From Candidatus Bathyarchaeota archaeon (GTDB lineage: Archaea > Thermoproteota > Bathyarchaeia > Bathyarchaeales > UBA233): 15,194 bases of DNA. Positions 594 through 14,961 of the stretch are shown in pieces. Every line of letters begins with the position of its first letter. Positions within the stretch are counted from its first letter, which is position 1. The notes beneath the pieces were generated by a model. The model worked only from the letters and a program-made list of their open reading frames with translations. It was not told the DNA's origin and ran no database searches. The position numbers and the translations under genes were made by a program. The stretch is taken from positions 1 to 15,194 of the forward strand of contig SOJA01000173.1 of assembly GCA_004376975.1 (NCBI GenBank), written 5' to 3'.

Positions 594-3500
594 TCAGACA
601 AAATCTACTAGACTAATTTGCTTCGGTTTCTTACCATCAAACAAAGCGTTAATCTCCTCCCTCGCAAGTAAAATTCTCTGAGCATAATACTGTGGCAATT
701 CATACTTTTTAATCAGATGCTGTGCAACATCCAAATATTTTTCAATACCGCCCCGATAAACAGTTAAGGTTAATGCTCCGTCACACGATGTACATTTGCC
801 TCGAAGGGGCAAACGCCGAAAACGCCTATTACACGATTTGCATCTAAAGCCCTGTGTCGAAAAAGCCCTTAGATTTCCTGCAATGTCCCGAATAAAATGT
901 GTGGTTAAAACCTTCAAAGCTACCTCTTTGGCATCGACAGCCTTAATCTTGTCAGCTAACTCAAGCTGACTGTTCAGTTTTTCAACCATTGTCTTAAACG
1001 TCTTATACGAACTCTCAGAGTTCCCCATATTAACGTTTGAGACAGGAGTCGTGTAACTGAAACCTTCGAATTGTGCCTCAGTTCCAAGTCTATACTCAAT
1101 CAGGTCTATGAGACGGCTAACATCTTTTGCTTCTGCATTATCCCAAGTCTTCTCATAAAATTCAAGCGGGTAGGACCTCGCAACATCAACGTCATGCGCT
1201 TGTCTTTGCACTTCTTTTGTCTTAACAATTGGAATCAAGAGCATTGGAGCATCCATTATTCCACCTATCCGTGCAGGCAGATATTCACGAGAAAAATTAA
1301 GTAAAGTGTCCAACGCAAGCATCACCGCGTCTTCGTCGCCATCACAGTCCCTCCGCTTGGCTGAATGCCAAATTGGATGAGCATAGCAGACACTTAGACG
1401 TGTAAAGCCTATGATACGTCCCAAAATGCCCGCACAAGTGTGCGGAGCCAAACCAACAACCAAACGTCCTAAAAGATCTTCCGCTCCGTTAACGTTATAG
1501 TAAGGTGGGAGACCGTAAACCTTCTTTAGAAGCTCATCAATGAAAGCTGCAACACGCACAAAGTAATCTGCACATCTGTCTGAAACAATGATGTCTTGAA
1601 TTTTGAGCTCGCATATTTGTTCTGAGCTCGTTAAGGATTCGCCGTTAACATCATTGGTGTAACCAAGTTGCCTCAGCTTTTCAACAGAAACTCCGATTTC
1701 AGAAGATTTGAAATGGGTTAAAGGAGCATTCGTAGCATCAAAACGAATTGTCCCATCCTTATACACTGACAAATCATATTTAGCTCTCAAGACACCTTTT
1801 TCAATGATTTCCGGAATCTTCGACTCGTTAATTAACCCTTTAACACCCTTCAAAATCTTCGGAACAGAAACGCCTAGGCTACTACACGCACTTTGAAGAA
1901 GTTCTCCAAAATTAATAGCCTGTTTCGCATAAGTTCTGGCGGAGATCTTACAGACAGGACATATGTTTCCCTTCAAGCTTCTCCCGCATCTGGGACAAAC
2001 CTTCTCAATAACTGTCTCAGCATCACAATTCCGACATTTTATCCCAAAAGTATACGTTTTACAAACCGGGCACTTACGCTTAACGACCTCCACGAAAACT
2101 TGTTCTCGTTTAGCCGCATCAACAACATTTCTACGAGGCCCCCCAGCCAAACCAACCGGAAACAACACATGCACAAGAGGTTTCATCTCACGCCTTTTCG
2201 CCTTTTCAGGTCGCCCCATCCGCGCACCCACAAGCGTAGGAGCCTTCTCTCTAACGGTTACACCGGAAATCAACCTAATGGCTTCTAAAACAGATTCAGC
2301 AGAAGAAAAATCCACATCCACAGCATTATAACCCAGACAAAACGCAAATGCATGCGCATCATCATCCTCAATAACAACTTCGCCATCTAAAACCTTATGG
2401 GGTAAACATATTGTTTCCATTGCCTTCTTAGTTTTCGAGTTCGCTTCCCCAACAATCTTGCGAACAAATCCATCTTTACACATTATTTCGGAATTAACAA
2501 GCCATTTTTTTACCAGTTCAAGCTCTTCAAGTGATGCAAGGTCTGACCAGAAGAACGTGAAAGACGGGTGAAGGGGGATACTCAAGGTTAGCGCTAGAGC
2601 TATTGCTTCCCTGCTCTCAGGCTTACTTAAAAATGGGTTTTCCAGAAAGCCTTCTAACCTTTTCAACGGAATTTTGACGACCTCAGCTATCTTCCCAAAA
2701 TCTCCATTGAACTTCTCAATTGCCGCTTTCTTCAGGTCCTCAACCCACCACTCCTCGACATATCCAGAAGGCTTAAGAGCCTTACTACTGTACAAGAAAT
2801 CCCCAAAACTGATCAACATGTCGCCTAAAAACAGAATTTTCTCAATCTTATTTTTTATCTCATCAAAGTTCTCTACTGAAACTCGAACAACCGAACCATC
2901 CTCTAACCTTACGATAGAGGACTCTATTGTATCGACTGGAACAGCAATACCGCCCTTTCCTGGAAGTTGTAACCGCAATTGGGTGCCCGCAGCCAGAAAA
3001 CCTTTAAGTGCCAGCATAGTTGCTGGGTGAATGCCTACTGCCGCCAAACCTGTATTTCTCGCCCTACCATATCTTAGCCGAAAACCGCCGCGTTTAGATG
3101 GAAACGAGAATATTGGACGGCCAGCGATAACATCATTCATGAAGCCAGCGGTTTTTTTCTCTTTAGATGCTCGACCAATTTCTTTAAGCCAGTCCCAGCC
3201 TTGAATCCCCAGTTTTTCTATAATTGTCCAAACCTTTGCGGAACGCCCCACAATTCCATCGTTTACCACACGTAGGGCTCCACCCCTCACCCGGTTTGTT
3301 TCAATGCGGGGAATATTCCGGAAGGAAGAAACCTCTACGGGGTTGGACTCCGTACCTGTTACTTGCACTGGTAGCCACTCAAGTGCCTCCCGTAACTCTT
3401 CATCTGAAACATGGTATTGGAAGCGAGTAACAGAACGTTCATAAAGTCTTGCCTCTTCAATAAATCGCGCGATTTCCTCTTCTGTGGGCTTGTATCGGTT

Positions 3501-4010
3501 AAGCCCAAGCAGTCTACGCACAAAATCACCAATTACCAATGTCAAAGCTTGATCTGTGCCACCTGCAGAGCGTATTGGACCCGCAAAATATATTGCAAGA
3601 TATTTTGTCCTATCCTTGTTGGCTTTGATTTTAACATTCGCTACTCCCTGCAAGGGTGCAGCGGTGAGGCCTTCTGTAAGAATTGCTAGTGCAGTTCGTA
3701 TAGCTTGTTCCGCTGCAGCTTCAGGCTCCATATGCCCGAACTTGCCGTAGATGATTTCCTCGGCGATCTTAAAGGCTAATTCTTCCCTTGGAAGTCTGAT
3801 GCTTAATTCTCTGATGCTTTCGGCAACTCTCTTCGGTCCAACGAGTCCCTCCACGAGGTCAGCCAAATCTTTTGCAATGCCACATTCGGGTTTAAGTGCT
3901 GGGTCAAGCGCTTTTTCCCTAGCTTTTCTGCTTGTAATTAGCAAATCTTCAAGTTTAGTTTCTAAACCTCTCACATATTGCTTGTATGCTTTGCTCATTT
4001 CACTATTCAA
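594..4010 (-). CDS. polC: DNA polymerase D large subunit DP2 (PolD catalytic subunit)
   Basis: The 1138-residue catalytic subunit of the archaeal replicative polymerase PolD, which pairs with DP1 (13405-14961). Length and content match complete, intein-free DP2. The active-site block KRRDCDGDEDAVML, around residues 885-898, keeps the acidic DGDED residues that bind metal in this double-psi beta-barrel polymerase. A central zinc region (about 645-690) has CPVC, CRNC, CPRC and CPVC pairs, and a second zinc finger (about 1055-1077) has CKSC and CTSC. The last eight residues, QISLVDFV, resemble a PCNA-interacting peptide. The start is TTG at 4010, supported by GGAGGAT six bases upstream; an ATG five codons in (MSKAYKQY) lacks that spacing. 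A winged-helix gene follows 48 bases downstream. No frameshift or missing motif was seen. Confidence 0.97.
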   Translation of the reverse strand: MNSEMSKAYKQYVRGLETKLEDLLITSRKAREKALDPALKPECGIAKDLADLVEGLVGPKRVAESIRELSIRLPREELAFKIAEEIIYGKFGHMEPEAAAEQAIRTALAILTEGLTAAPLQGVANVKIKANKDRTKYLAIYFAGPIRSAGGTDQALTLVIGDFVRRLLGLNRYKPTEEEIARFIEEARLYERSVTRFQYHVSDEELREALEWLPVQVTGTESNPVEVSSFRNIPRIETNRVRGGALRVVNDGIVGRSAKVWTIIEKLGIQGWDWLKEIGRASKEKKTAGFMNDVIAGRPIFSFPSKRGGFRLRYGRARNTGLAAVGIHPATMLALKGFLAAGTQLRLQLPGKGGIAVPVDTIESSIVRLEDGSVVRVSVENFDEIKNKIEKILFLGDMLISFGDFLYSSKALKPSGYVEEWWVEDLKKAAIEKFNGDFGKIAEVVKIPLKRLEGFLENPFLSKPESREAIALALTLSIPLHPSFTFFWSDLASLEELELVKKWLVNSEIMCKDGFVRKIVGEANSKTKKAMETICLPHKVLDGEVVIEDDDAHAFAFCLGYNAVDVDFSSAESVLEAIRLISGVTVREKAPTLVGARMGRPEKAKRREMKPLVHVLFPVGLAGGPRRNVVDAAKREQVFVEVVKRKCPVCKTYTFGIKCRNCDAETVIEKVCPRCGRSLKGNICPVCKISARTYAKQAINFGELLQSACSSLGVSVPKILKGVKGLINESKIPEIIEKGVLRAKYDLSVYKDGTIRFDATNAPLTHFKSSEIGVSVEKLRQLGYTNDVNGESLTSSEQICELKIQDIIVSDRCADYFVRVAAFIDELLKKVYGLPPYYNVNGAEDLLGRLVVGLAPHTCAGILGRIIGFTRLSVCYAHPIWHSAKRRDCDGDEDAVMLALDTLLNFSREYLPARIGGIMDAPMLLIPIVKTKEVQRQAHDVDVARSYPLEFYEKTWDNAEAKDVSRLIDLIEYRLGTEAQFEGFSYTTPVSNVNMGNSESSYKTFKTMVEKLNSQLELADKIKAVDAKEVALKVLTTHFIRDIAGNLRAFSTQGFRCKSCNRRFRRLPLRGKCTSCDGALTLTVYRGGIEKYLDVAQHLIKKYELPQYYAQRILLAREEINALFDGKKPKQISLVDFV

Positions 4011-8758: not shown

Positions 8759-8851
8759 CAGCAATCTCAAGCATGAAATCCCGACAATCTTAAAAGGGTT
8801 ACAGTGTATACAAAAGTGTATTCACCACAGAGAACTTGTGGAGAGAACAAA

Positions 8852-9316
8852 TTGAATATGAAAAAGAGTGTTCAAACGTGGTTAACAAGAGCCCTAAACG
8901 ACCCAATCACAAAGACGCTCTCCAAAAACAGCCATTTAACTAAAATACAGCTTGAAACATTACTCATTGATGTTTTATCCGACACTGTTGCCGGCAAACC
9001 GTTAAAATACGATGTGAAAGCCAGATTACGACTAACAAAGGCGCAAATAAGTCGTGGATCCTTTAACAGAACATTAGAACAGGCGAAAAATAACGTAGTA
9101 AAGGCGATCTATACAGTACTACTTTTAGGATATCTAGGAGTCTTCGAGAGTACAACACTAGATCCATATCTGGAAATAGCGAACAAACTGAACAGGTACA
9201 TGGAAGCATATAGAACGATGCCAAATCAAGGTCGACTACTCAAAGAACAATTAGAAGTTATGAAAATGATGAGAGAACAGCTTCAAACAGCCCTTAAACA
9301 ACTATCGAGCCCATAA
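8852..9316 (+). CDS. Uncharacterised helical protein, possible degenerate HTH
   Basis: A protein of about 154 residues that I do not recognise. It looks almost wholly helical: LTKIQLETLLIDVLSDTV, then a basic segment with RLRLTKAQISRGSFNRTLEQAKNN (which could be a helix-turn-helix), a hydrophobic helix VVKAIYTVLLLGYLGVFE, and a C-terminal helix rich in Glu, Gln and Met (LLKEQLEVMKMMREQLQTAL) that could form a coiled coil. The hydrophobic segment is short and preceded by lysines, so it may be a core helix and not a membrane span. I chose TTG 8852 because GGAGAG lies six bases upstream; ATG 8858 is an alternative. An upstream GTG at 8804 would precede the likely transcription start. A membrane-linked winged-helix gene follows 304 bases downstream. 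Confidence 0.62.
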   Translation: MNMKKSVQTWLTRALNDPITKTLSKNSHLTKIQLETLLIDVLSDTVAGKPLKYDVKARLRLTKAQISRGSFNRTLEQAKNNVVKAIYTVLLLGYLGVFESTTLDPYLEIANKLNRYMEAYRTMPNQGRLLKEQLEVMKMMREQLQTALKQLSSP

Positions 9317-9323
9317 AAAACGT

Positions 9324-9617
9324 TATGTGACATCACATATCACGAATAAGAAGTAATCTATTTACCTAAAAGTTTGTCGGTGAACACAAATAAAGCGTAA
9401 AAAAGGCTCAAAATGAACAAATAACTCAAGCACAAGACTATTCACGCACAACTGAGTAAGCCGTACACTTCACATAACCTAGGACCATTCACTGTGACAT
9501 GTGATATGATAGATGTGATAAATCATGTGGTTAACCGTAACTTTTAAATCTGAAATGTTAGAACTGTGATGTGTGATGCAACGTGTGTAAATCACATATA
9601 ATCACAAACGAATCACA
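9324..9617. promoter_or_regulatory. TGTGA/TCACA site array before the membrane-anchored regulator
   Basis: The 304-base gap between the 8852 gene and the 9621 gene contains eleven TGTGA or TCACA pentamers: at 9326, 9333, 9470, 9493, 9500, 9514, 9565, 9572, 9592, 9602 and 9613. The first two form a 16-bp palindrome, TATGTGACATCACATA (9324-9339, 7-2-7). The last three are spaced 10 and 11 bases, one helical turn, and bracket CATATAATC (9595-9603), a TATA-like element about 23 bases before the GTG at 9621. A second A/T element, TTTTAAAT, is at 9542-9549. Chance would give fewer than one such pentamer pair. The likely reading is a repressor or autoregulator array over the promoter. Confidence 0.6.
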
Positions 9618-9620
9618 GCG

Positions 9621-10340
9621 GTGTATTATTTGATTGATATCTTCCTAGTTCTTGCTGGCGTTTTACTTGCAGTCACTTTCGGTGCCTCCGTTGAGTACTA
9701 CAGGCAACTTCGGAGGGCCCAAAAGGAGTATGAGAAGGCAAAGGAAGTCATAGAAGACATCATATTAAGTTTCAATAGACAGTTCAAAAATGAAGCAGAG
9801 AAGTTAGAGGTTGTTGCATACAAGGTTGGGGCGATTTCTTCGAAAGGTGAACGGGCTCTAGAGAAGGCAGAAGAGGTAGAAAAACAGCTGCAGGTTCTGG
9901 AGCCTAGAGTCGGCAGCATGTTAGAAAATAGCGAAAAAGTTTTGACGACACTCGATGAAATTGACAAAAGGGTACGTGATACCGTTACATCACAAGAGGT
10001 ATTTGCAGCTAGGGTTTCCGACATAGAACAACAGACCCAGCGAGTCCTGGTGACTCCTGAACTAAGGATTGACGCGGCTATACCGATAAAAAGAGAAAAA
10101 GCCTTGGCTCCGTTAACTGAAACGGAGTTATCTGTGTTAAAGATTCTTGCTTTGGAGGGACCAAAAACTGCACCTGACATCAAGGATAGAATAAATCTTA
10201 GTAGAGAGCATACCGCCAGGTTAATGAAGAATCTTTATGAAGAAGGATATGTAGATCGGGATACAAGAAAAATCCCTTTCAAATATCACGGTAAGAAAGA
10301 GATGAAAAAAATTTTAGGTAAGACAGAAAGAGAAACTTGA
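9621..10340 (+). CDS. Membrane-anchored coiled-coil protein with C-terminal winged helix
   Basis: A 239-residue protein in three parts. Residues about 4-26 (LIDIFLVLAGVLLAVTFGASV) form one hydrophobic helix, most likely a membrane anchor, followed by a basic stretch that puts the rest in the cytoplasm. Residues about 30-150 are a long amphipathic, charged helix with coiled-coil character (AQKEYEKAKEVIEDI, ALEKAEEVEKQLQVLEPR). Residues about 163-239 are a winged helix-turn-helix (LTETELSVLKILALEGPKTA, then DIKDRINLSREHTARLMKNL, YEEGYVDRD) with a basic tail. The start is GTG 9621 with no Shine-Dalgarno site; the TATA-like element 23 bases upstream suggests a leaderless transcript. The family is not recognised by name. 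A role in tethering DNA to the membrane or in membrane-sensed regulation is inferred from the layout only. Confidence 0.8.
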   Translation: MYYLIDIFLVLAGVLLAVTFGASVEYYRQLRRAQKEYEKAKEVIEDIILSFNRQFKNEAEKLEVVAYKVGAISSKGERALEKAEEVEKQLQVLEPRVGSMLENSEKVLTTLDEIDKRVRDTVTSQEVFAARVSDIEQQTQRVLVTPELRIDAAIPIKREKALAPLTETELSVLKILALEGPKTAPDIKDRINLSREHTARLMKNLYEEGYVDRDTRKIPFKYHGKKEMKKILGKTERET

Positions 10341-10428
10341 TTCACTTTCAGCCAAAATTTGTCATATTCACTCACATTTTGCAATAATTCGGATTGGTAA
10401 TTCTCCAACAAAAGTTCGAGATCGTCCT

Positions 10429-10854
10429 TCAAGGTATTGGTTGTTTGATTGTGGTCATAGAAAAACTTGTTATCATCCTATAGTTAAGATGCTTTGACAC
10501 CCGTTTTTTCGCGAGTATCCCTCTATCTGCCATCCGAGAAAGATAAGTTGTCATCGTGCTGTGAGTTATTGGTTCTTTTAGTTCCCGCTCATAAACGGAC
10601 TGAACCTCCTTTGAGGAAAACCATCCCAGCGGAAAGTGTTTTTGAATAATGAGGTGTGCCTTGTCATATTTTGAAAATCTACTAGTGGGATTGGTAATTC
10701 TAGGATTTACTCCACCATCAGATGTCCCACCCAACAATTGCACCAAGTCAAGAAGATGAAGAGCTTTCTCTCGGGTTACTTGACCTTCAAACGATATAGT
10801 ATATCGACCACCTTCACTATCGAATAAGTCAATACGTATCTTTCTCGCAGGCAT
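10429..10854 (-). CDS. Winged-helix DNA-binding protein next to the origin
   Basis: A 141-residue protein. The N-terminal part, about residues 1-42, looks like a small beta domain with a helix (KIRIDLFDSEGGRYTISFEG, then TREKALHLLDLVQLLGG). A polar linker follows, and residues about 63-128 form a winged helix: YDKAHLIIQKHFPLGWFSSKEVQSVY, then ITHSTMTTYLSRMADRGIL, then a basic wing AKKRVSKHLNYRMI. The ATG at 10854 is supported by GGTG within the upstream palindrome. It converges with the membrane-anchored regulator (88-base gap), and its promoter faces the origin region. The symmetric sites directly before it suggest autoregulation, and TCACA repeats in the same spacer could be its targets. 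I do not recognise a named family. Confidence 0.8.
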   Translation of the reverse strand: MPARKIRIDLFDSEGGRYTISFEGQVTREKALHLLDLVQLLGGTSDGGVNPRITNPTSRFSKYDKAHLIIQKHFPLGWFSSKEVQSVYERELKEPITHSTMTTYLSRMADRGILAKKRVSKHLNYRMITSFSMTTIKQPIP

Positions 10855-10855
10855 A

Positions 10856-10871
10856 AAAGGTGTACACCTTT
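10856..10871. promoter_or_regulatory. 16-bp perfect palindrome at the start of the winged-helix gene
   Basis: AAAGGTGTACACCTTT reads the same on both strands and ends two bases upstream of the ATG at 10854. On the minus strand it contains the GGTG that would act as ribosome binding site. A protein bound here would block this gene's transcript or translation initiation, as expected for an autoregulatory operator. Confidence 0.55.
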
Positions 10872-10894
10872 ACAGTAATTCACAACTTTACAGT
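10864..10894. repeat. 13-bp direct repeat, two copies 18 bp apart
   Basis: ACACCTTTACAGT (10864-10876) and ACAACTTTACAGT (10882-10894) differ at one base. The first copy overlaps the right half of the 16-bp palindrome, and both lie in the upstream region of the minus-strand winged-helix gene. TTCACAA follows or overlaps each copy (10879-10885, 10894-10900). They look like repeated protein-binding sites. Confidence 0.5.
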
Positions 10895-11052
10895 TCACAA
10901 GTTATAGGTGTTATGGTGAAAAAGGGAAAAAATACACTCTTATTTTGGGTTTGAAAACACGAAAGAAAGACAAAATGCAGCGGTTTCATCATCACAAACT
11001 TCACAGTTGCCTTGACTAAAGAAAAAAAACCGAAACGTCTACAGTTAGCTAT

Positions 11053-11076
11053 CTCCAGTAGAAAGTTAGGGGTGGC
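11053..11076 (+). promoter_or_regulatory. Origin recognition box-like element, distal copy
   Basis: CTCCAGTAGAAA followed by GTTA and GGGGTGGC. It matches the copy at 11493-11516 at 17 of 24 positions, including the dyad core, GAAA and GGGGTG, and also resembles the classical archaeal box (CTCCAGTGGAAAC plus a G-run). It is 232 bases from the next box. Orc1/Cdc6 proteins contact the dyad by the winged helix and the G-run by the AAA+ domain. Confidence 0.65.
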
Positions 11077-11151
11077 CTTTTCACAGAAAAGAAGCAAGAA
11101 TAAGTTAACATTTATTAGAAGAACATGAAAAACAAACAACATTTAATCAAA

Positions 11152-11178
11152 TTCACAATACATTCACAACATTGTGAA
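11152..11178. repeat. Phased TTCACAA repeats and a 16-bp palindrome
   Basis: TTCACAA occurs at 11152-11158 and 11163-11169, 11 bases apart, and as its complement TTGTGAA at 11172-11178. The last two form a TTCACAA-CA-TTGTGAA palindrome. Two more direct copies are at 10879-10885 and 10894-10900. One-turn spacing and dyad symmetry point to cooperative binding by a dimeric protein. Confidence 0.5.
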
Positions 11179-11231
11179 AAAATACATAAAGAAAGAGGTT
11201 TAACCCCTGTCGCATAACTTTTGCACGAAGC

Positions 11232-11310
11232 TGTGAAAGTAAAAGAGTGAAAAAATGTAAATTAGAAAAATGGAAAGAGTAAAAGTGTAAGTGTTAAGAG
11301 TAGATGGTGG
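11232..11310. other. 79-base stretch without C on the plus strand
   Basis: From 11232 to 11310 the plus strand contains only A, G and T, dominated by GTGAAAG, GTAAAAG and GTGTAAG-like units. It ends inside the left origin recognition box. Such strand asymmetry beside an A/T-rich unwinding element could favour strand separation or be a loading strand for replication proteins. Confidence 0.42.
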
Positions 11311-11332
11311 CACCCCCTCATTTCCAATGGAA
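11309..11332 (-). promoter_or_regulatory. Origin recognition box-like element, left of the A/T tract
   Basis: On the minus strand TTCCATTGGAAA is followed by TGAG and GGGGTGCC. It agrees with the box at 11493-11516 at 19 of 24 positions. Its G-run points away from the A/T-rich tract, mirror image to the right-hand box, as in several described archaeal origins. Confidence 0.72.
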
Positions 11333-11492
11333 GGAAGAAATATAATTACTTCAGTATTTGAAATAAAATTTTGGTGTATATATCAAAAATCTTTAACAAT
11401 AATTATTATAATAGTTTGATTTTGCCTTAAGTATTAGAGTATATTTCTTTTAAATAAAGAAATCAACATAAACTCTTAAAGTTATTAGAGAT
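11333..11492. other. A/T-rich putative DNA unwinding element
   Basis: Counting 11341-11490 gives 27 G or C in 150 bases, about 82% A+T, with runs such as AATAATTATTATAATAG. It lies exactly between two outward-facing recognition boxes, the standard place for the duplex unwinding element of an archaeal origin. Confidence 0.68.
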
Positions 11493-11516
11493 TTCCAATA
11501 GAAACGGTGGGGTGCC
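11493..11516 (+). promoter_or_regulatory. Origin recognition box-like element, right of the A/T tract
   Basis: TTCCAATAGAAAC followed by GGT and GGGGTGCC. It is the copy nearest to orc1/cdc6, about 136 bases before the preferred start, and the inverted partner of the box at 11309-11332. Confidence 0.72.
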
Positions 11517-11651
11517 TCTGTTGTTCACCCTTTTTTCTATATCGCCATCTCCTTTATTTTAGAAATTTTATGTTAACCATTTAGTTTTATGTATGATATG
11601 ACTTATCTTTTTCACGGGAAACTGGGGTATTACGTCTGGACACTGAGGACG

Positions 11652-12896
11652 ATGGTAAATATGATCAACTCTGATATACTTGATGAAGTGTTTGACAAGT
11701 TCGTTGGTTACACACAAATTTTTGATAATCGCGATGTTCTTCGATATGACTATCTGCCTGAAAAGTTGCCCCATCGTGAAGAACAGATTAAATTGCTTGG
11801 GCAAACAGTTGCACCGGTCTTAAAAAGGGCCAGGTGTTCAAACATCTTTCTTTATGGGAAGACAGGGACAGGTAAAACAGCCGTAACAAAATATGTGTTA
11901 AACCATTTAGAAACTAAGGCTAAAGAGCTTAATGCACCGGTTAAGGTGTGCTACGTCAACTGCCGTTTAATAGGGACTGAATATCGGGTTTTTGCAAGGT
12001 TGTGTGGGAGTTTAGGCGTGTCTGTTCCGTTTACAGGGTTATCTGTTGCGGAGGTTTTTGGCAGGTTCAGAACGGGCTTGGATTCTTCAAAAATTCTTTT
12101 AATTATCGTTTTGGATGAGATTGACGCGCTAGTTAAGGTACATGATGACAGTGTGCTCTATGAACTTACTCGAATAAACGAAGAATTATGCCGTAGTGAG
12201 ATTTCTCTTATAGGCATATCTAATGATCTACGACTAAAGGAGTTTCTCGATCCCCGCGTTTTAAGTTCACTCAGCGGAGAAGAAATTGTCTTTCGGCCTT
12301 ATGACGCAGGTGAGTTGCGAAATATTCTTTTCGAACGTGCACAATTAGCTTTTCATGATGGCGCCTTGTCTGATGGGGCTTTGGGCCTTTGTGCTGCATT
12401 GACCGCTGCGGAACATGGTGATGCTCGGCGAGCCTTGGATTTGCTGCGTGTCGCCGGCGAGGTTGCTGAGCGAGAAGGTGTAAACGTTATTATGGAAAAA
12501 CATGTTCGAGAAGCGGAAGAACGCATTGAACATAACAGAGTTATTGAAGCTTTAAGAAATCTTACTCTACATTCGAAACTTGTAATTTTGAGTCTTTTTC
12601 ATTTAAGCAGGTCAAATATCCGCCGTGCTGTTACTGGCGGAATCTACGAGGTTTACAGTGAGCTTTGTGGAGAATTAAGTGTTACACCTTTAACACAGCG
12701 GCGTGTGAGTACTTTGGTTAATGAGCTTGATGCTATGGGGTTATTGAACGCGCGGGTCGTAAGCTTGGGAAGATATGGACGAACGAAGAAAATTCGGTTA
12801 GAGATCACTCGTACAGTTATTAAAGAGGTTTTCGCTGCCGACAAGAGGCTTGGACGTTTGATCAAATATAAGTCAAAATCTCTCTCTAAGAAATGA
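11652..12896 (+). CDS. cdc6: Orc1/Cdc6 replication initiator (AAA+ ATPase)
   Basis: A 414-residue archaeal Orc1/Cdc6 protein, which binds origin boxes and helps load the MCM helicase. Landmarks numbered from the ATG at 11652: Walker A YGKTGTGKTA (about 68-77), Walker B IVLDEIDAL (about 152-160), sensor 1 GISNDL (about 188-193), sensor 2 GDARRALDLLRVAGEVAE (about 256-273), and a C-terminal winged-helix region (about 310-400, including RRVSTLVNELDAMGLLNARVV) for origin DNA. The frame is open to an ATG at 11589, but the family normally begins near MINSDILDEVFDKF; GAGG sits before 11652, and an ATG at 11661 is also possible. Length is normal and all motifs are intact. It faces away from the candidate origin and converges with DP1. 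Confidence 0.95.
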   Translation: MVNMINSDILDEVFDKFVGYTQIFDNRDVLRYDYLPEKLPHREEQIKLLGQTVAPVLKRARCSNIFLYGKTGTGKTAVTKYVLNHLETKAKELNAPVKVCYVNCRLIGTEYRVFARLCGSLGVSVPFTGLSVAEVFGRFRTGLDSSKILLIIVLDEIDALVKVHDDSVLYELTRINEELCRSEISLIGISNDLRLKEFLDPRVLSSLSGEEIVFRPYDAGELRNILFERAQLAFHDGALSDGALGLCAALTAAEHGDARRALDLLRVAGEVAEREGVNVIMEKHVREAEERIEHNRVIEALRNLTLHSKLVILSLFHLSRSNIRRAVTGGIYEVYSELCGELSVTPLTQRRVSTLVNELDAMGLLNARVVSLGRYGRTKKIRLEITRTVIKEVFAADKRLGRLIKYKSKSLSKK

Positions 12897-13404
12897 TCAC
12901 GGTAGGAGTGGCAAATAGAAGTTTCCGAAAGGACATGGCCGCAAAGGCTATTCTCTGCGCAGTTCCGTTTAAAGAACCAAAATTGAAACTATGAAAACCG
13001 TTTTGTGTTCTCTAGGACTGCAAACCACTAAGAATATGCTGAAACCCTGAGAGAACTGAGGTTTGGATTAGTGACGTTTTGAAGTTTCCTTTATAGGCTC
13101 CAAACTCATTGACCTCTTGGTTGTGTGTGAAGAATTTGGAAAACTGGTTGCCAAATATCAATGACAAAACACGGCTATAAAGCAGTGAATCAAGTTGCAA
13201 ACAGCCAGAAAATTGGCGAATCCGCTGGAGAAGGTCCTATATTGGGCTTGTTCCAGTTGGCTGTCTTTCGACTGATGTGTCCCCGTCTTGGTTGGAACTG
13301 CTTGGACACTCGTTGGCTGGCACGTATGAGTTTGCTAAGGTTTCTAGTTTGCAGCGGAACAATAGAATCAATTGGAGATGTGCGGTTAATTTCACATGAC
13401 ATAC
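12897..13404. other. 508-base convergent gap, no gene identified
   Basis: Between the stops of cdc6 and DP1. The frames open here (plus 13161-13412, minus 13190-13402, minus 13012-13200) have unlikely composition, overlap each other and lack good start sites. No tRNA, C/D-box RNA or origin box was found. Two weak inverted repeats are visible: AAACC/GGTTT within 13041-13065, and ACAGCCA (about 13199-13205) pairing with TGGCTGT about 50 bases downstream. The region is less A/T-rich than the other spacers, so a structured RNA or a decayed gene is possible. Confidence 0.4.
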
Positions 13405-14961
13405 CTAATTGAATGAAATAACCGTGGTCCCTAATGTTTGGAGGTTTACTACTGGAACTTTTCCAGGTGTCGGAATAATTCCAAGTCTGTGCATATAATC
13501 TGTTTGTTCTTGCCAGCAGCCTGAATTGACAACTAGAACCCCGCGATAAGTGCCGAGTTCCAGTTGGTGTATGTGTCCCGAGTGGAAAATATCTGGGACA
13601 TTCTCGATAACTAAGCAGTCCCTATTTTCAGGTGATAGAGGTGTTTTTCCACCATATACTGGTGCAAGATGGCGGCTTTTCAACAACAAGGTCATGGCTT
13701 TCTCTGGGTGTTTATGATTCATTGTTGGAATTGTTGAAACAATGTCATCTAGGCTACGGCCATGGTATAGGAGTACTTCCACATTGTGAAGACTTAGACG
13801 ACAAGGATTTCCAAGGGAATAAACTTCTCTCGCCTCTTGCAGTGGCTCTAGGAATTTACTCGAAATGGGTGGTTGTGGCAATGCCTTTCTTGGAGCATCA
13901 TGGTTTCCAGGTATAACAACCACTTCTATGTAATCCGGAATCTGCTCGATGAAATTCGCTGCCAACTCATATTGCTTATAAACTTCTGTGATAGCCAACT
14001 CTTCAATCTGGTTAGGATATATGCCTACTCCATCAACGATGTCGCCCGCTATTAACACATATTTTACGTGGCTTGCTATTTCTCTCATCTTTTCGTTTCC
14101 ATATTTGCCGTTAAGCCACAATATGAAACGGTTGAATGCTTCTCTCTGGAATTTTATGCTACCAACATGCATGTCTGAGGTGAGCACTGCATAAACGGGG
14201 GTTGCGGCTTTACGTTGAGACTTTTTGGCTATGTCAGGCAAAATGATGTCTTCAGCAATAAGAAGATTGCTCCTTGTCTTCACGACGCTTAAGCAGACAA
14301 CTTGGTCAAGTAAAAGGGAGGATACTTTTTTGACAAGATTCTCATTGGCGTTCTGGGGAACAAGTACCGTTGCATTTGCGGATAGATCTTCAATAGTTAA
14401 AAAGGTCCTTCTTCTTGAATCTCTCTTGTTTGTGATCATAGCGATTACTTTGAGTTTCGTGTTCGCTGGAGATTTAACTGCATTAATAATCGATGTGGCA
14501 TTCCTGACATCTATTCTTTGTCTTAGCAATCTTTCCATTCGCTTGAATCGGTCTCGGAAATATCCCAGATAGTTTTCGATTGTTCCGTTTGAATCTAGTT
14601 TGCTGCCTGGGTCCTCAATTATTTTGAGATCTGCCTCAACCTCTTTTGCATAAGGGCGGAATGGTCTTTTCCCTTCTGTTACTTGTGGCTCGGGTAATGT
14701 CTGAAGGGGGTCTTTCATTGACTGGACAAAAGTTTCTTTTGTAGTCTCTCCCTCTTTTACAAGCTCTTCCAGCAAACTTCTGCCAACAAATAATGGCTTT
14801 TCTTTTAGGGTCTCTATTTTCAGTATTAACTTGCTTATGATTTCTGTCGGATCTTCTGTTGTGGATATCAGACTCAGAAATTCAAATGCTTCTTTGTTAA
14901 GCTGGTATCCTGCCTCAATCAATAATTCAACGGCTTTTTGCAGTTTATTTGTTTCATTCAT
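13405..14961 (-). CDS. polB: DNA polymerase D small subunit DP1 (3'-5' exonuclease)
   Basis: A 518-residue DP1, the proofreading partner of DP2. The N-terminal third (about 1-110) is helical and then linker-like. An OB-fold region follows (about 150-250; KLKVIAMITNKRD, TFLTIEDLSANATVLVP). The C-terminal half is a calcineurin-like metallophosphoesterase with all usual motifs: SDMHVGS (about 261-267), AGDIVDGVG (about 305-313), IPGNHD (about 351-357), HGRSLDD (about 397-404) and SGHIHQ (about 460-466). All metal ligands appear present, so exonuclease activity is expected, as in other archaeal DP1 and unlike eukaryotic B-subunits. The ATG at 14961 follows GAGGAAG with a somewhat long gap. A 51-residue frame overlaps its start by eight bases, suggesting translational coupling. 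Confidence 0.96.
   Translation of the reverse strand: MNETNKLQKAVELLIEAGYQLNKEAFEFLSLISTTEDPTEIISKLILKIETLKEKPLFVGRSLLEELVKEGETTKETFVQSMKDPLQTLPEPQVTEGKRPFRPYAKEVEADLKIIEDPGSKLDSNGTIENYLGYFRDRFKRMERLLRQRIDVRNATSIINAVKSPANTKLKVIAMITNKRDSRRRTFLTIEDLSANATVLVPQNANENLVKKVSSLLLDQVVCLSVVKTRSNLLIAEDIILPDIAKKSQRKAATPVYAVLTSDMHVGSIKFQREAFNRFILWLNGKYGNEKMREIASHVKYVLIAGDIVDGVGIYPNQIEELAITEVYKQYELAANFIEQIPDYIEVVVIPGNHDAPRKALPQPPISSKFLEPLQEAREVYSLGNPCRLSLHNVEVLLYHGRSLDDIVSTIPTMNHKHPEKAMTLLLKSRHLAPVYGGKTPLSPENRDCLVIENVPDIFHSGHIHQLELGTYRGVLVVNSGCWQEQTDYMHRLGIIPTPGKVPVVNLQTLGTTVISFN

What the first reader, a model, noticed from the sequence alone, without database searches (positions are those of the whole stretch)
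11053..11516. Candidate chromosomal replication origin beside orc1/cdc6
Two 24-bp elements agreeing at 19 of 24 positions face outward across a tract of about 82% A+T, directly upstream of the initiator gene. Each has a TTCCA dyad, GAAA and GGGGTGCC, matching the composite logic of archaeal origin recognition boxes. That is seen in the sequence; origin function is inferred from characterised archaeal origins. Origins in PolD-bearing TACK lineages are little described, so the exact box consensus here may be new.
Basis: partly seen in the sequence, partly recalled or inferred. Interest (0 to 1): 0.85.

Follow-up and report, generated by a model that had tools for sequence, protein, structure and literature searches.

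The report
Archaeal replication origin with second element
This stretch is very probably where an uncultured archaeon starts copying its chromosome, and besides the usual initiator-binding boxes it carries a second set of repeats and a neighbouring DNA-binding protein gene that recur together at candidate origins of many related archaea.

Summary
The spacer upstream of orc1/cdc6 in this Bathyarchaeia-like contig holds three origin recognition boxes: 11053-11077 (+), 11309-11332 (-), 11493-11516 (+). The last two face outward across 160 bp of 81% A+T. Their pattern (TCCA-3-GAAA-4-GGGGT) is the published common archaeal ORB, so the box is not new. In 81 genomes of the probable class, 76 of 86 exact boxes lie within 1.5 kb of orc1 or of a neighbouring winged-helix (wHTH) gene. 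GC skew was uninformative; no firing data exist.

The new part is a second element. The spacer holds eight TTCACA/TGTGAA copies (0 of 2000 shuffles reach eight), all on the side away from orc1, where a divergent gene (10429-10854, -) encodes an uncharacterised wHTH protein. Twenty-six further spacers confirm the repeat (126 seen, 28.9 expected). Gene, ORBs and repeat recur in Nitrososphaeria and Asgard archaea; ammonia-oxidiser-type loci carry TTAACA instead, and there a recognition-helix Thr is Ile/Val. I infer that this protein binds the repeats and acts at the origin. Binding and function are untested.

The parts
11053..11077 (+). ORB1, CTCCAGTAGAAAGTTAGGGGTGGCC
   Evidence: exact match to the pattern; matrix score 28.6; conserved in the 10-spacer alignment
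11309..11332 (-). ORB2, TTCCATTGGAAATGAGGGGGTGCC, inverted relative to ORB1 and ORB3
11333..11492 (.). A+T-rich core between ORB2 and ORB3 (81% A+T), probable unwinding element
   Evidence: position and spacing conserved
11493..11516 (+). ORB3, TTCCAATAGAAACGGTGGGGTGCC
10879..10899 (+). two TTCACA copies (10879-10884, 10894-10899) at the promoter end of the divergent wHTH gene
   Evidence: present in most rows of the alignment
11000..11005 (+). TTCACA copy
11080..11085 (+). TTCACA copy beside ORB1, 26 bp after the start of TCCA
   Evidence: the same 26-bp offset is the commonest one relative to an ORB in the 54 spacers (10 cases)
11152..11178 (.). TTCACA 11152-11157, TTCACA 11163-11168 and TGTGAA 11173-11178: tandem pair 11 bp apart, the second copy forming the dyad TTCACAACATTGTGAA
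11232..11237 (-). TTCACA copy on the minus strand (reads TGTGAA on +)
10429..10854 (-). divergent gene for a 141-aa winged-helix protein of an uncharacterised family; proposed binder of the TTCACA array
11589..12896 (+). orc1/cdc6 (Orc1-1 type); likely start near 11652
   Evidence: Pfam Cdc6_C and Cdc6_lid, NCBIfam NF001625 above cut-off, PDB 2qby_A
13405..14961 (-). PolD small subunit DP1, convergent neighbour of orc1
   Evidence: DNA_pol_E_B, Metallophos
594..4010 (-). PolD large subunit DP2
   Evidence: PolC_DP2 domains

Best explanation
This is the orc1-linked chromosomal origin of a Bathyarchaeia-like archaeon. Orc1-1 from the adjacent gene binds ORB1, ORB2 and ORB3; the inverted pair ORB2/ORB3 flanks an A+T-rich core that opens and where MCM is loaded (inferred from Sulfolobus oriC1). 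On the side away from orc1, the winged-helix protein made by the divergent gene binds an array of TTCACA sites that runs from its own promoter past ORB1 to within about 70 bp of ORB2. It most likely acts as an origin-associated factor that shapes or limits initiation and also regulates its own gene. Shown here: the anatomy, its conservation, and the association of repeat, protein gene and ORBs. Inferred: binding by this protein, its effect on initiation, and that the origin fires.
For: Three exact ORBs with the published common motif in the layout described for Sulfolobus oriC1. Boxes confined to these loci: 10 of 10 exact matches in 8 genomes, 76 of 86 in 81 genomes. Inverted pair in 61 of 71 spacers scanned, ORB1 as well in 57. 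TTCACA is the top hexamer in two sets of 26 spacers (127 vs 27.8; 126 vs 28.9), and 259 of 266 copies lie on the wHTH side. Three-copy arrays: 10 of 11 matches in 81 genomes are at these loci, reversed control 2. Where the wHTH gene is elsewhere in the genome (9 genomes) the array stays with the ORBs and orc1. Spacers of genomes with wHTH (63) have a median of 6.8 copies per kb, without (20) 0. AOA-type spacers have TTAACA (213 vs 40.7) and the wHTH recognition helix has Ile/Val for Thr there.
Against: No binding, footprint or firing data. GC skew uninformative. The window's own genome is not held. TTCACA is not enriched in 28 Nitrososphaeria loci (5 of 28 with 3 or more); the TTAACA reading was made after that. 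Exceptions: L286 (4 repeats, no wHTH found, assembly gap just upstream), L261 (wHTH, no TTCACA), L305 (1 copy), L223, L243, L054 for the residue-motif match. In L307 the array is at the wHTH gene with no ORB found there, and the orc1 spacer of that genome has none. Independent residue/motif changes are too few for significance. Kinship is not corrected.
Confidence: 0.7

Rival explanations
1. A canonical Orc1 origin only. The TTCACA repeats are the operator of the divergent wHTH gene, an ordinary transcription regulator beside the origin with no role in replication.
For: Two copies sit at the promoter end of the wHTH gene in the window. In L307 the array is at the wHTH gene without an ORB. The fold matches are ArsR-, BlaI- and Fur-type regulators.
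Against: In nine genomes the wHTH gene lies elsewhere with 0-2 copies in its upstream 500 bp and no exact ORB, while the array stays at the ORBs and orc1. In Asgard L288 and L289 the array lies beyond the ORBs, on the far side from the wHTH gene. Copies spread over about 360 bp of the window and flank ORB1.
Confidence: 0.17
2. The origin has a second element, but another protein reads the repeats, for example the second Orc1/Cdc6 paralogue or a chromatin protein.
For: A second Cdc6_C match is present in 7 of 8 genomes searched, in one of them only a 72-aa contig-edge fragment. No binding data exist.
Against: Genomes without a detectable wHTH have 0-1 copies at orc1 in 19 of 20 cases. The repeat variant goes with residue 100 of the wHTH, first of 118 columns over all 111 sequences and first of 120 with the AOA type left out.
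Confidence: 0.1
3. The boxes mainly control transcription of orc1 and wHTH, and the chromosome starts replication elsewhere or by recombination.
For: ORB3 lies about 135 bp before the likely orc1 start. Thermococcus kodakarensis can replicate without Cdc6 and its origin (PMC5663688, start of abstract in the listing).
Against: Three boxes with an inverted pair around the most A+T-rich 100 bp of the window match characterised origins. The boxes are confined to these loci.
Confidence: 0.05

Closest known systems
Sulfolobus oriC1 (Orc1-1, ORB1-ORB3)
   Same: Three ORBs, two of them inverted around an A+T-rich region, beside orc1-1 (PMC12141716, sections read); Orc1 of the window matches Sulfolobus Orc1-1 best (2qby_A).
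   Different: ORB2 to ORB3 is about 185 bp here, against a 130-bp ORB3-DUE-ORB2 region there; TTCACA array and divergent wHTH gene here.
ucm/UBP of Sulfolobus origins
   Same: A second origin element with its own DNA-binding protein, UBP (PMC12141716, sections read).
   Different: ucm lies inside the DUE, the TTCACA array outside it; UBP is a saddle-shaped beta-hairpin protein, the candidate here a winged helix.
Euryarchaeal cdc6-DP1 origin islands
   Same: Origin beside cdc6 with the PolD small subunit near by (PMC2643942, passages read).
   Different: DP1 is convergent with orc1 here; wHTH gene and repeats are additional.
BlaI/MecI-type (Penicillinase_R) and ArsR-type regulators
   Same: Winged-helix fold, weak sequence similarity.
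   Different: Below Pfam cut-off for the window's protein; extra N-terminal beta-hairpin and helix; linkage to ORBs.

Membership tests
Orc1-dependent archaeal chromosomal origin (oriC1 type) | ORB motifs of the known consensus | tested here: met
   three exact boxes; common motif from PMC4164010
Orc1-dependent archaeal chromosomal origin (oriC1 type) | inverted ORBs around an A+T-rich region | tested here: met
Orc1-dependent archaeal chromosomal origin (oriC1 type) | adjacent Orc1/Cdc6 initiator gene of Orc1-1 type | tested here: met
Orc1-dependent archaeal chromosomal origin (oriC1 type) | box cluster confined to the origin in the genome | tested here: met
   met in relatives: 10 of 10 matches, 76 of 86; the window's own genome is not held
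Orc1-dependent archaeal chromosomal origin (oriC1 type) | extreme of base-composition disparity | tested here: inconclusive
   no significant skew in three sampled relatives
Orc1-dependent archaeal chromosomal origin (oriC1 type) | replication starts there in vivo; Orc1 binds the boxes | not testable with these tools
   needs marker-frequency analysis and footprinting
ucm/UBP element | element inside the DUE | tested here: not met
   none of the 8 TTCACA copies in the window lies between ORB2 and ORB3
ucm/UBP element | UBP beta-hairpin saddle fold | tested here: not met
   model of the wHTH is a winged helix; UBP fold as described in PMC12141716; the two were not aligned directly
Penicillinase_R (BlaI/MecI) | Pfam gathering score | tested here: not met
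   20.4 bits against 22.6 for the window's protein; 35 of 53 members match at E 0.01 or better
WhiP (winged-helix initiator of Sulfolobus oriC3) | sequence homology to WhiP | not tested
   WhiP is known here from papers only

The most novel reading that the evidence does not exclude
Many TACK and Asgard archaea, ammonia oxidisers included, carry a two-part origin: Orc1 on ORBs, and an undescribed winged-helix origin protein on a TTCACA (TTAACA in ammonia-oxidiser-type loci) array. The two are old partners, and the protein's recognition helix and its site have changed together.
Probability: 0.6. Interest if true: 0.86.

Novelty: new variant of a known kind. Interest (0 to 1): 0.74.

Why it matters
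The ORBs alone would be one more predicted archaeal origin. The linked gene and repeat point to a second origin factor across TACK and Asgard archaea, with one gene and one short site to test. Some of these lineages have cultivated ammonia oxidisers (recalled), in which marker-frequency and ChIP experiments should be feasible. The gene is also a marker for finding origins in Asgard genomes, where in several loci the boxes sit beside it with no orc1 near by.

Tried and rejected
GC skew: three related chromosome records were sampled in 40 pieces of 20 kb each (about 66%, 51% and 61% of 1.20, 1.56 and 1.31 Mb) and showed no significant cumulative skew. The records may be scaffolded, so I draw nothing from it.

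Viral origin: a scan of viral contigs with the Orc1 found no relative. Both PolD subunits lie in the window, which fits a chromosome.

RNA element: no Rfam family in 10400-13450. Terminator-like stems (2 found, 0.3 expected in shuffles) and bacterial-type promoter matches (3 found, 3.5 expected) at 10800-11700 were set aside; one stem overlaps ORB3.

Plain TTCACA density as a genome-wide marker: in the three sampled chromosomes, whose orc1 spacers hold 3, 4 and 4 copies, 2.4%, 0.35% and 0.10% of 800-bp windows reach as many, so a plain count is not unique there. The three-copy pattern is more specific but was found in only 11 of 81 genomes.

'TTCACA wherever the wHTH is' was rejected by 28 Nitrososphaeria loci and replaced by the TTCACA/TTAACA reading.

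Literature: searches listed no paper whose title or abstract start describes this wHTH, this repeat or a Bathyarchaeia ORB origin. For some searches only part of the matching papers was listed (15 of 43, 10 of 458, 8 of 10). The library holds open-licence PMC papers only.

Full report
1. What is there. The window encodes an Orc1/Cdc6 protein (11589-12896 +), PolD small subunit DP1 (13405-14961 -) and PolD large subunit DP2 (594-4010 -). The closest listed relatives of the Orc1 are about 71-80% identical; those with an organism name are nearly all Bathyarchaeia MAGs. Its best solved relatives are 2qby_A (Cdc6 homologue 1; Sulfolobus Orc1-1 is recalled) and 2v1u_A. Most listed relatives are 414-418 aa long, so translation probably starts near 11652 and the spacer to the divergent gene runs from 10855 to 11651 (797 bp, 69% A+T). 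The window's own genome is not held, so all genome-wide tests are on relatives.

2. The boxes. A third copy opens the finding's interval (11053-11077). All three are exact matches to one 23-base pattern, and none of 200 shuffles gives three matches even with three mismatches. Spacing and letters agree with the 'common' archaeal ORB motif of Ori-Finder 2, TCCA[CG]T[TG]GAAA[TC][GA]AAGGGGT (PMC4164010, passages read). The layout is that described for Sulfolobus oriC1: three ORBs, two inverted around an A+T-rich region (PMC12141716, sections read).

3. Conservation and uniqueness of the boxes. Near-strict matches occur upstream of orc1 in 26 of the first 33 loci (two of the seven without have under 150 bp upstream). 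With a weight matrix trained on 88 strict boxes (null 0.0075 hits per kb), 61 of 71 spacers scanned have the inverted pair and 57 also ORB1; the median distance between ORB2 and ORB3 starts is 183, 10-90% range 171-210. Fifty-four of those 71 supplied the training boxes, and L064 is in twice. In 8 whole genomes all 10 exact matches lie upstream of orc1; two of the 8 have no exact match, and the reversed control gives one. In 81 genomes of the class of G002 (Bathyarchaeia by inference from the record title of L012), 76 of 86 exact matches lie within 1.5 kb of orc1 or of the wHTH gene described next; 30 of the 81 genomes have no exact match.

4. A second element. A hexamer count on the spacer showed 8 copies of TTCACA/TGTGAA; 0 of 2000 second-order shuffles reach 8 (mean 1.76). 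This was noticed after the fact, so it was tested elsewhere. In 26 spacers, window included, it is the most enriched hexamer, ahead of the ORB words: 127 against 27.8, at least 3 copies in 26 of 26. In 26 further spacers from other genomes it is again first: 126 against 28.9 (maximum of 200 simulations 42), at least 3 copies in 23 of 26. Of 266 copies in 54 non-redundant spacers, 259 lie in the half towards the divergent gene. An alignment of 10 spacers shows conserved islands: a double TTCACA at the divergent gene's promoter end, one beside ORB1, a tandem pair 11 bp apart between ORB1 and ORB2, the three ORBs, and a TTAGAGTATA-like block in the core. A three-copy pattern occurs 11 times in 81 genomes, 10 of them at these loci; the reversed control occurs twice (compared).

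5. The divergent gene. It encodes a 141-aa protein with 444 homologues at E 0.001 or better; where the 120 listed are named, they are hypothetical proteins or ArsR-family regulators. The AlphaFold2 model has mean pLDDT 73, with 80-92 per ten-residue block over residues 61-130, the winged helix. Foldseek gives only generic winged helices among its best matches, none at E 0.001 or better. Pfam gives Penicillinase_R below cut-off for the window's protein (35 of 53 members match at E 0.01) and Cdc6_C weakly in 8 of 53. It was found in 52 of 81 genomes of the class, including a few fragments or weak matches; 37 of these 52 are divergent from orc1 within 1.2 kb. It was also found in 52 of 61 genomes of the class of a Nitrososphaerales record (50 at E 1e-20 or better) and in 55 of 79 of the phylum of a Heimdallarchaeota record (50 at E 1e-11 or better).

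6. Which parts go together. (a) In nine Aigarchaeota/Caldarchaeum-like and related genomes (L034, L035, L037, L038, L039, L042, L062, L072, L077) 3-6 repeats are at the orc1/ORB spacer, although the wHTH gene lies elsewhere in the genome with 0-2 repeats in its upstream 500 bp and no exact ORB. (b) In four genomes where 3.3 kb separates orc1 and wHTH (L279-L282), the repeats and ORBs are at the wHTH gene and no ORB was found at orc1. (c) In six genomes with the wHTH gene about 3.8 kb downstream and convergent (L273-L278), four keep an exact ORB 125-132 bp from the wHTH gene and the matrix finds one there in all six; the inverted pair is at orc1 in three (L273, L275, L278); the wHTH side has 1-5 repeats. 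(d) In Asgard L288 and L289 the order repeats, ORB1, ORB2, core, ORB3 stands beside the wHTH gene, with the repeats on the far side and no orc1 within the 6.5 kb held. Across 79 genomes, 41 of 91 exact ORBs are within 1.5 kb of the wHTH gene, in 30 of 51 genomes. (e) Of 20 spacers from genomes without a detectable wHTH, 19 have 0-1 repeats. Four are from the class itself: L283, L284 and L285 keep an exact ORB and have none (L285 has only 243 bp upstream), L287 has one repeat and no exact ORB. The 20th, L286, has four repeats and no wHTH found, but a run of N in the assembly lies just upstream of them. Spacers with wHTH (63) have a median of 6.8 copies per kb against 0 without, p 1.4e-10, kinship not corrected. 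Eighteen relocated, Asgard or euryarchaeal rows were listed apart: the wHTH side had 0-11 copies, low in L305, L306 and the Methanosarcinales-type distant homologues. (f) In L307 (Archaeoglobaceae) the array is at the wHTH gene with no ORB found there, while the orc1 spacer of that genome has ORBs and no repeat.

7. A result against, and what it led to. In 28 Nitrososphaeria loci ORBs lie upstream of the wHTH gene in 27 (downstream in 3), but TTCACA is not enriched: only 5 have 3 or more. An open count on 22 of these spacers gave TGTTAA/TTAACA as the top hexamer, 212 against 43.1 (213 against 40.7 on slightly longer pieces). Residue 100 of the protein (99 where the initial Met is not counted, as), third in the predicted recognition helix, is Thr in 81 of 111 sequences. 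TTCACA is the commoner word in 77 of those 81 (1 TTAACA, 3 ties); TTAACA is commoner in 28 of the 30 without Thr. The column ranks first of 118 overall and first of 120 with the AOA type left out (p 1.9e-4); among the 54 Bathyarchaeia-set spacers alone it is not in the top six. The tree needs 5 residue changes and 4 motif changes; there are three independent supported pairs, which agree on average in 2.2 and oppose in none, too few for significance. Exceptions: L223, L243, L054. I take this as suggestive that the protein reads the site, not as proof.

8. Mechanism. Orc1-1 on the three ORBs and opening of the core follow characterised origins. The second element, I propose, is read by the wHTH protein. 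Because the array stays with the ORBs when the gene is elsewhere, an origin role is likelier than a plain operator; because two sites sit at the gene's own promoter end, autoregulation is likely as well. Whether it helps or restrains initiation is unknown. Firing, binding and function are all untested.

9. Literature. Passages of PMC4010727, PMC2643942, PMC12993045, PMC4164010, PMC8287685 and PMC11005403 and the abstract and four sections of PMC12141716 were read. Ten searches listed nothing on this protein, this repeat or a Bathyarchaeia ORB origin; listings and abstract starts only were seen.

Noticed in passing
L273-L278: Six genomes have the origin apparently split: ORB1 and repeats beside a convergent wHTH gene about 3.8 kb downstream of orc1, with the inverted ORB pair left at orc1 in three of them.
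   Followed up: partly
L288 1796-2474, L289 2281-2718: Asgard loci with repeats, three ORBs and an A+T-rich core beside the wHTH gene and no orc1 in the 6.5 kb held.
   Followed up: partly
L307 1188-1465: Archaeoglobaceae genome with six TTCACA copies upstream of a wHTH homologue but no ORB found in the locus.
   Followed up: no
L292, L311-L313: Methanosarcinales-type genomes hold longer proteins (230-320 aa open frames) with a distantly related C-terminal winged helix; L292 has an ORB a few hundred bp upstream.
   Followed up: no
window 11427-11450: A TTAGAGTATATTTCTTT-like block inside the A+T-rich core is conserved in most of 10 related spacers and could be a further origin element.
   Followed up: no
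window 8804-10340: Two genes of unknown function (170 aa without Pfam match; 239 aa with a C-terminal MarR/TrmB-like winged helix) precede the wHTH gene; similar-looking ORFs precede orc1 in L284, where the wHTH gene is missing (compared by eye).
   Followed up: no
L024: A contig labelled Omnitrophota bacterium encodes a Bathyarchaeia-like Orc1 with two ORBs upstream, probably a binning error.
   Followed up: no
window 12897-13404: About 508 bp between orc1 and DP1 with no ORF of 80 aa or more except the start of one at 13161 on the + strand that overlaps DP1.
   Followed up: no
L286 about 1870-1975: A run of N (assembly gap) lies just upstream of the TTCACA copies, where the wHTH gene would be expected.
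   Followed up: partly
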